From the NCBI GenBank assembly GCA_900315165.1, contig OMXZ01000008.1:1-64000 (forward strand): a stretch of 64,000 nucleotides of DNA, given 5' to 3'. Position 1 is the stretch's first letter, and each line of letters begins with the position of its first letter. Shown here in pieces: positions 20,790 to 22,599 of the stretch. Source of the DNA: an uncultured Actinomycetes bacterium (GTDB lineage: Bacteria; Actinomycetota; Coriobacteriia; Coriobacteriales; Atopobiaceae). The notes under the pieces are model-generated. The model saw nothing but the letters and a program-made list of their open reading frames with translations, was not told where the DNA came from and searched no databases. The translations under genes and the position numbers were made by a program.

Positions 20790-20893
20790 GACGTTCTCCC
20801 TAGGTCGCGACGGCGCTTTGCCGTCCTGCCTGCAAGGTACCCGACGCCTGGACTTTCTAAACGAAAAGGCGGTTCAGAGTGACATTAAGGGAT

Positions 20894-20914
20894 GACATTG
20901 GGGGACGTTTCCCT
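20894..20914. repeat. Left arm of a palindromic repeat split by the IS
   Basis: These 21 bases, including GGGGGACGTTTCCC, are the exact reverse complement of 22507-22527. Similarity continues outward to about 20879 with one indel. The arm ends in CT, which recurs at the other IS junction. Confidence 0.85.
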
Positions 20915-20926
20915 CATATGACCGAC

Positions 20927-21281
20927 CCCCTGTCAAGCAAAAGATAAGACTGCCCAGGCCCCCGCGTCGGGGAGCCCGGGCAGCCGTCTTTCGCCCGCCG
21001 CCGGACGGGACCGCCACGACGTGTCCTTCGAACGTCAGGCTCTGTGAACAGTCTCATATCCGCGTGTCGCCGCCCCTCGCGGGGCTTGGTTGCCGCAAGT
21101 AGATGCCTTCGGCCGGGCCGGAGCCGCGGGTCGACCGGCAGGTCGTCCGGTTCTATTGCCGCGCGCGCCCCGCAAGGGGTGTGCAAGGGAAGTTCCGCGG
21201 GTCGCGCCCCAGGCGCCATCGGCGTCCCGTCGGGCGGCGGGCTATGTCCTGCGCGCCCCGTCGGGCGCGCGGGTCACCTGG
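20927..21281 (-). ncRNA. Candidate bridge/seek RNA region of the IS
   Basis: About 355 non-coding bases lie between the transposase stop and the IS end, rich in GC hairpins. IS1111-type elements encode their target-guiding RNA in this position (known for the family). A segment at 21185-21191 (AAGGGAA, read on the minus strand as TTCCCTT) equals seven target bases spanning the CT core. The RNA ends and fold are not established here. Confidence 0.4.
20938..20983 (-). terminator. Hairpin near the end of the IS
   Basis: CTGCCC at 20950-20955 pairs with GGGCAG at 20978-20983, with further inner pairs. On the minus strand the stem is followed by a T-rich stretch, so it may end the transposase and guide-RNA transcript. 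Confidence 0.5.
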
Positions 21282-22370
21282 TCATCGGCCCATGGTCGCC
21301 ACGTAGTAGACCCACTCGGCGAGCTCGCGGGCCACGGCGACCTTGGCCTTGTTGGCCGGCACGCCGCGCCGGCCGAGCGCGGCCCTGCGGGCGCGCAGGC
21401 GCTCCGAGCAGCGCAGCGCCTTGTCTGCCACGGCCCCCGGCACCCCCTCCGGCGCCCGGGCGGGCGGCCGCGGGGAGCGGGGGCCGATCCCGGAGGCGGC
21501 CTCCACGAGCAGGCGCCTCAGGTTGGCGTTGCCGCGCTTGTCGATCCCGCCGCGGCGCGTGCGCGAGCCGGTGGAGCGCTCCGACGGCGTGAGGCCCAGC
21601 CAGCTCGCGAAGGCCCGGCCGCTGCGGAAGCGCGAGAAGTCGTAGACCTCGCAGACGAGGGACATCGCCGTGACCCTGCCCACCCTGGGCAGGCACTCGA
21701 GCGCGGCGACGGCCGCGGACAGCCCCGGGTCGGCGGCCACGAGCCGCCCCATCTCGGCCTCTATGGCCGAGAGCCTCCCGAGCTGGCGCTCCTCCTCGCG
21801 GCAGAGGTCCCTGAGCACGTAGGTGTCCGCCGGGCAGGCCATCTCGTGGGTCCGGCACCAGCCGCGGAAGGCCTTGGTCCACCTCTTCTTCGTCAGCGTG
21901 TAGCGCGTGCCCGTGAGCAGCAGGAACGACGCCACCCTCTGCCTGGAGGCCCTGAGCTGGGCGGCCGCCTGGCCCCTGAGGGCCGACAGGTGCCTGAGGG
22001 CCTCCTCGGCCTCCGTGGGCACCCTCACCGGCCTCACCGCGCCGGACGCCAGGCACCTCGCCAGCCACTCGGCGTCGATCCTGTCCGTCTTCATCGCGTC
22101 CGTGCGCCTGGGCAGCTTCGAGGTCGCGGCCACCGTGCAGGGCCAGCCGGCCGCCACGAGGGCCCTGGCCAGCACGAAGCCGGTCGGCCCGGCCTCGTAG
22201 ACGCACATGGCGCCCTCCGGGGACCCCACGGCCCCCGCCAGCCACTCCGCGAGGTCGCCCGGGTCGGCGCCGAGCGTCGCCCTCCTCACCTCGCCGGTCT
22301 CCGTGTCGAGCGCGCAGACCTCGTTCTTGCGCGAGTGCGTGTCGATCCCTATGCATGTGCGATACTTCAT
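21282..22370 (-). CDS. IS110/IS1111-family transposase
   Basis: A 362-residue transposase. An N-terminal RuvC-like DEDD domain has Asp in IGIDTH, Glu in VYEAGPTGF and the Asp pair in KTDRIDAEWLA. A C-terminal Transposase_20 domain has the helix-hairpin-like PRVGRVTAMSL and the Ser/Gly-rich GLTPSERSTGSRTRRGGI, which includes the catalytic Ser. The length is typical and the frame intact, so it is probably active. The GC content is slightly higher than the surroundings and is rich in Arg codons. About 115 non-coding bases precede it inside the element. Confidence 0.95.
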   Translation of the reverse strand: MKYRTCIGIDTHSRKNEVCALDTETGEVRRATLGADPGDLAEWLAGAVGSPEGAMCVYEAGPTGFVLARALVAAGWPCTVAATSKLPRRTDAMKTDRIDAEWLARCLASGAVRPVRVPTEAEEALRHLSALRGQAAAQLRASRQRVASFLLLTGTRYTLTKKRWTKAFRGWCRTHEMACPADTYVLRDLCREEERQLGRLSAIEAEMGRLVAADPGLSAAVAALECLPRVGRVTAMSLVCEVYDFSRFRSGRAFASWLGLTPSERSTGSRTRRGGIDKRGNANLRRLLVEAASGIGPRSPRPPARAPEGVPGAVADKALRCSERLRARRAALGRRGVPANKAKVAVARELAEWVYYVATMGR

Positions 22371-22487
22371 CCGGGGGCCTCCCGTCCCTGCGTGTGGCTC
22401 TTGGCCACGTCCGTCTGTGACGAGAGGATTGTCGCCTAACCCACGGCCGGCAGGAGGGGGGCTCCCGACCCCGCTCGTCGGTCATAT

Positions 22488-22527
22488 CTTCTAATGTCAT
22501 GACAGAAGGGAAACGTCCCCCAATGTC
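22488..22527. repeat. Right arm and loop of the palindromic repeat split by the IS
   Basis: Bases 22507-22527 are the inverted copy of 20894-20914. The intervening bases 22488-22506 complete the stem end (CTTCT with AGAAG) and the loop AATGTCATGAC of the uninterrupted palindrome. Partial similarity extends to about 22541. Confidence 0.8.
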
Positions 22528-22599
22528 ATCCCCAATGTCACGAATGGTTACCATATCGACAACAGAACGCTCTCTAGGGATGATGAGGCGGACCTTAAC

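What the first reader, a model, noticed from the sequence alone, without database searches (positions are those of the whole stretch)
20879..22541. IS1111-type element inserted into a perfect long palindrome with a CT core
Removing 20915-22487 and one of the two flanking CT dinucleotides restores a palindrome with a perfect 24-bp stem and the loop AATGTCATGAC. The element has 11-bp subterminal inverted repeats and no target duplication beyond CT. Targeting of palindromic REP-like repeats is known for some IS110 relatives such as IS621, which also uses a CT core. The exact reconstruction gives precise ends and a precise target.
Basis: partly seen in the sequence, partly recalled or inferred. 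Interest (0 to 1): 0.72.

Follow-up and report, generated by a model that had tools for sequence, protein, structure and literature searches.

The report
RNA-guided jumping gene in a repeat

Summary
An intact IS1111-type element sits in an inverted pair of REP units, between an HdeD/DUF308-like gene and an adenosylhomocysteinase-like gene. The reconstructed junction is wrong by 3 bp at one end. All 57 relatives examined have ends of the form [core]-NNN-ATATG…CATAT-N-[core]. Uninterrupted REPs in Gordonibacter (29 of the predicted form; 0 exact of the other) and beside a RAYT gene in genome G037 put the border after AG, so AAG belongs to the element. The joined ends give a TTGACA–17 bp–GAAGAT promoter-like sequence only with these ends. 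The real core copies are CT at 20913-20914 and CT at 22491-22492 (not 22488-22489); the element is 20915-22492.

Its 3' non-coding region encodes a predicted bridge/seekRNA. One guide complements the right flank (AGGGAA, 6/6), the other copies the left flank (CAATAG vs CATTAG, 5/6), and a donor segment reads ATATGAGA like the circle junction. Across 19 relatives the guides follow each element's own flank (right guide 69 matches vs 32.4±5.3 shuffled). The target is a RAYT-type REP family with about 30 arms in this genome.

REP-seeking, RNA-guided IS1111 elements are already described, so this is a new member of a known kind. It is not IS621-type.

The parts
20915..22492 (-). IS1111-type element, 1578 bp, counted with one core copy (22491-22492) as in the IS1111 convention
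   Evidence: Ends by comparison with 57 relatives and uninterrupted REPs
20913..20914 (.). core dinucleotide CT (AG in transposase orientation), copy next to the right end (RE)
22488..22490 (-). three LE bases (AAG in transposase orientation) between core and sTIR; part of the element, not of the target
   Evidence: All 57 relatives have 3 nt here; the uninterrupted sister REP in G037 lacks them
20916..20926 (-). right-end subterminal inverted repeat GTCGGTCATAT
22477..22487 (-). left-end subterminal inverted repeat ATATGACCGAC
21282..22370 (-). transposase, 362 aa, DEDD RuvC-like plus Transposase_20 domain, intact
   Evidence: PF01548 and PF02371, NF033542 IS110 family RNA-guided transposase 213 bits vs cut-off 140
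21033..21220 (-). predicted bridge RNA / seekRNA in the 3' non-coding region
   Evidence: Conserved in relatives at 41-57% transposase identity; 5 of 23 predicted pairs with two-sided changes
21186..21191 (-). guide 1 UUCCCU, complement of the right flank AGGGAA (6/6 from the core)
21153..21158 (-). guide 2 CAAUAG, copy of the left flank CATTAG (5/6)
21052..21059 (-). donor segment AUAUGAGA, same as the joined circle ends CATATG-AG-A
   Evidence: the base after ATAT follows the RE base (G, C or T) among relatives
20931..20936 (-). outward TTGACA, -35-like; 17 bp from GAAGAT when the ends join
20893..20914 (.). interrupted REP unit 1, left part TGACATTGGGGGACGTTTCCCT (continues at 22493-22499, AATGTCA)
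22493..22499 (.). interrupted REP unit 1, remaining part AATGTCA
22500..22528 (.). REP unit 2, inverted, TGACAGAAGGGAAACGTCCCCCAATGTCA

Best explanation
This is an intact IS1111-group insertion sequence that moves by a circular intermediate and is steered by its own bridge/seekRNA to one arm of a REP repeat. Joining the ends in the circle makes a promoter (TTGACA-17 bp-GAAGAT) that transcribes the transposase and the 3' RNA. The RNA pairs through a donor segment with the joined ends around AG, and through two guides with both strands of the target around AG. The transposase then exchanges strands at the AG core (CT on the + strand), leaving one core copy on each side and no other duplication. 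Shown here: the anatomy, the ends, the repeat family, and the agreement of guides with flanks across relatives. Inferred from experiments on relatives: RNA expression, the circle, and the recombination chemistry.
For: Both IS110-family domains and the RNA-guided IS110 NCBIfam model match. The nearest solved structures are the IS621 and ISCro4 transposases. The DEDD positions and a GL-P----(S/T)G motif are visible in the alignment. sTIRs are 11 bp; the non-coding lengths are about 117 bp 5' and 369 bp 3'. Fifty-seven relatives share [core]NNN-ATATG...CATAT-N-[core]. TTGACA lies 17 bp from a -10-like hexamer in 53 of 57 joined ends. Guide-to-own-flank matches: right 69 vs 32.4 +- 5.3 (0 of 50,000 shuffles), left 46 vs 33.7 +- 2.2 (2 of 50,000). 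The programmed 10-mer CAATAGGGAA has 8 sites in the own genome vs 0 for the reversed control, 5 of them in REPs. In Gordonibacter the programmed CGTAGGGCAA has 51 sites vs 19, with 29 uninterrupted REPs among those read. In genome G037 the element is inserted in the REP just behind a REP-associated tyrosine transposase gene, and an uninterrupted REP copy lies about 1.1 kb away.
Against: No second copy of this very element and no empty version of this very site was found. The syntenic locus in same-genus genome G002 lacks the REP as well. RNA covariation is modest and the single-sequence fold is not more stable than shuffles (z -1.1). No Rfam family matches.
Confidence: 0.93

Rival explanations
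1. One reading: same element, but the core is the CT directly next to the sTIR (22488-22489), and the empty site is a 29-bp perfect palindrome with loop AATGTCATGAC.
For: It gives the longest perfect stem (29 vs 26 bp), and guide 1 would pair one base further (AAGGGAA).
Against: 57 of 57 relatives have 3 nt between core and ATATG. 29 of 29 REP arms have 3 nt, never 6, between CGTTTCCC and TGTC (partly selected by the search). The joined ends would space TTGACA and GAAGAT at 14 bp.
Confidence: 0.04
2. The element recognises hairpin structure in the palindrome (structure-directed insertion) rather than sequence through an RNA guide.
For: Several relatives sit in palindromes or terminator hairpins.
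Against: Close relatives in genomes G288/G289 and others sit in non-palindromic sites that still match their guides. IS1111 seekRNAs were shown experimentally to set the target (PMC11187229).
Confidence: 0.03

Closest known systems
ISPa11 and other REP-targeting IS1111-family elements (ISPpu9, ISPpu10)
   Same: Elements reported in REP sequences (PMC1525189). For ISPa11 a seekRNA from the 3' non-coding region matches the REP target, the complement of the top strand preceding the bottom-strand match (PMC11187229), as in this element.
   Different: Those are in Pseudomonas; this one is in Coriobacteriales, in a different REP family and with different guides.
IS621 (IS110 group)
   Same: RNA-guided DEDD transposase that inserts into REPs; core dinucleotide exchange; closest solved structure by sequence.
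   Different: In IS621 the bridge RNA is 5' of the gene and the group's inverted repeats are 2-3 bp (PMC11208160); here the RNA is 3', sTIRs are 11 bp and the core is AG in transposase orientation.
IS element of Gordonibacter sp. Marseille-P2775 (LT827128; L004, L024, L030)
   Same: 57% identical transposase, same RNA architecture, AG core, inserted in a GTAG-type REP.
   Different: Guides read CGTAG and TTGCCCT instead of CAATAG and TTCCCT, matching that genome's own REP.

Membership tests
IS1111 group of the IS110 family | DEDD RuvC-like N-terminal domain plus Transposase_20 C-terminal domain | tested here: met
   PF01548 58 bits, PF02371 77 bits; NF033542
IS1111 group of the IS110 family | subterminal inverted repeats, 7-17 bp | tested here: met
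   11 bp perfect
IS1111 group of the IS110 family | extensions of 7 bp (left) and 3 bp (right) beyond the sTIR | tested here: inconclusive
Met if the sTIR is counted from ATG (AGAAGAT / ATG); with the full 11-bp sTIR it is 5 and 1.
IS1111 group of the IS110 family | long non-coding region downstream of tnp with RNA holding two target matches, top-strand complement first | tested here: met
   369 bp downstream; guide 1 (complement) precedes guide 2 (copy)
IS1111 group of the IS110 family | promoter formed by joined ends | tested here: met
   TTGACA-17-GAAGAT by sequence only; activity not tested
IS1111 group of the IS110 family | circular intermediate and RNA bound to transposase | not testable with these tools
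   Needs experiment
IS621-like IS110 group | bridge RNA in the left end, upstream of tnp | tested here: not met
   Left non-coding end is about 117 bp; the conserved RNA lies downstream
RAYT-associated REP | short dispersed palindrome, often in inverted pairs | tested here: met
   About 30 arms in the own genome, several as inverted pairs
RAYT-associated REP | a REP-associated tyrosine transposase gene flanked by the same REP | tested here: inconclusive
   None in the own genome (88.7% complete) or its four congeners. Present beside the same REP type in same-family genome G035 (L192) and beside the targeted REP in G037 (L201); NF047646 is their only NCBIfam hit, below its cut-off

The most novel reading that the evidence does not exclude
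In Coriobacteriales one clade of IS1111 elements repeatedly rewrites its target guides to follow whatever REP family its host genome carries, living off RAYT-spread repeats; a sister clade in Collinsella has rewritten them to find intrinsic terminators.
Probability: 0.5. Interest if true: 0.5.

Novelty: new member of a known kind. Interest (0 to 1): 0.4.

Why it matters
It extends REP-seeking, RNA-guided IS1111 elements to Coriobacteriales. It also offers a natural series of guides matched to different targets (window, Gordonibacter, G037, G288 and others), useful for working out the pairing rules of IS1111 bridge RNAs. It is a caution that the longest reconstructed palindrome is not always the true empty site.

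Tried and rejected
A direct empty site was sought in the same genus: G002 is syntenic but has no REP; G003 is not syntenic past the first gene. A search for close copies gave none from the single protein in genome contigs, none from the alignment in viral contigs, and only partial 60-80% DNA matches in plasmids. Rfam gave no match. A RAYT gene was sought in the own genome and not found. Structure-directed insertion was considered and rejected because close relatives use non-palindromic sites. No structure prediction was run because the transposase is placed clearly by sequence.

Full report
What is there. Window 20915-22492 holds an intact insertion sequence whose single gene (21282-22370, minus strand, 362 aa) encodes a DEDD transposase of the IS110 family. 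It lies between an HdeD/DUF308-like gene and an adenosylhomocysteinase-like gene. In gene orientation the left non-coding end is short (about 117 bp to the sTIR) and the right one long (369 bp), the IS1111 pattern described by Siddiquee et al. 2024 (PMC11187229) and Durrant et al. 2024 (PMC11208160). The 11-bp repeats ATATGACCGAC / GTCGGTCATAT lie just inside the ends.

The palindrome. The flanks are two REP units in inverted orientation: TGACATTGGGGGACGTTTCCCT|AATGTCA (unit 1, interrupted) and TGACAGAAGGGAAACGTCCCCCAATGTCA (unit 2). The arm AARGGRAACGTCCC occurs 19 times in this 2.3-Mb genome and its reversed control never. With CGTTTCCC as seed, 29 of 29 arms that reach a TGTC have exactly three bases in between; five seeds have no TGTC nearby. 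Some of these arms were gathered with a pattern that fixed this spacing, but the arms from the set, gathered without it, agree. The same REP type lies beside a Y1 transposase gene in same-family genome G035 (L192), whose only NCBIfam match is REP-associated tyrosine transposase, below its cut-off. The host genome itself shows no such gene at 88.7% completeness.

Where the ends are. That yields a 29-bp perfect stem, but it is wrong by three bases. The three copies in Gordonibacter sp. Marseille-P2775 (G145, LT827128) read GTAG-AAG-ATATGACC at the left end and CATAT-G-AGGGCAAGG at the right, and uninterrupted REPs there read GTAGGGCAAGGGC (29 read). In G037 an element sits behind a RAYT gene with the border GAGCACAG|AAG-ATATG, and an uninterrupted REP about 1.1 kb away reads GAGCACAGGGGACGG. 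The G037 left and right ends come from different contigs (L032, L011), but the left border alone settles the point. Of 57 relatives with recognisable ends, all have three bases between the core and ATATG; the core is AG in most, and TG, AA or AT in a few. So the AAG matching the stem is a coincidence of three bases.

How it finds its target. The right non-coding region contains a conserved RNA-like stretch (21033-21220) shared with relatives whose transposases are 41-57% identical. Guide 1 (UUCCCU) complements the right flank from the core, AGGGAA. Guide 2 (CAAUAG) copies the left flank with one mismatch, CATTAG. A third segment (AUAUGAGA) reads like the joined ends; its variable base follows the right-end base (G, C or T) in other subgroups. 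In the anchored comparison of 19 relatives the guides match their own flanks far better than those of others: right 69 vs 32.4±5.3 with 0 of 50,000 shuffles as high, left 46 vs 33.7±2.2 with 2 of 50,000. The relatives are not independent, so these are not strict probabilities. An unanchored version over 46 elements agrees. The programmed 10-mer CAATAGGGAA occurs 8 times in the host genome (0 for the reversed control), 5 times inside REPs; the actual target differs from it by one base. The near relatives in G288 and G289 sit in non-palindromic sites, and the two G288 copies carry different guides, so the palindrome is the target because the guide names it, not because it folds.

Limits. No second copy of this element and no empty version of this very site was found; the syntenic locus in same-genus genome G002 has neither REP nor IS. 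RNA covariation is modest (5 of 23 pairs with two-sided change) and the single fold is unremarkable (z -1.1). Expression, circle formation and strand exchange are inferred from published work on relatives.

Known or new. REP insertion by ISPa11, ISPpu9 and ISPpu10 was described by Tobes and Pareja (PMC1525189). The guiding RNA of IS1111 elements, including ISPa11 at REPs, was shown by Siddiquee et al. and predicted broadly by Durrant et al.. This element is therefore a new member of a known kind. It is not IS621-like in the strict sense: the RNA is on the other side of the gene, and the CT core is AG when read in the element's own orientation.

Noticed in passing
L015, L017, L018, L061-L071, L077, L080, L103 (right flanks): A sister clade in Collinsella and relatives often sits at an A-tract followed by a GC-rich hairpin, i.e. 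intrinsic terminators of the opposite strand; in several its guide 1 carries a run of T. About ten of 18 flanks tested have a clear hairpin.
   Followed up: partly
window about 22420-22445 and the same place in relatives: A motif like GTGGGTTAGGCGACAAT is conserved between the left sTIR and the transposase start in distant relatives; its role is unknown.
   Followed up: no
L201 and L032 (G037:C43): An IS1111 element is inserted in the REP right behind a REP-associated tyrosine transposase gene, so it interrupts the RAYT-REP unit itself.
   Followed up: partly
G000:C44:2016-2333 (L001): A second, partial IS110-type transposase gene in the same genome.
   Followed up: no
own genome, about 30 REP arms: REPs are abundant though no RAYT gene was found in this genome or its four congeners; the REP at this locus is absent from the syntenic site in G002.
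   Followed up: partly
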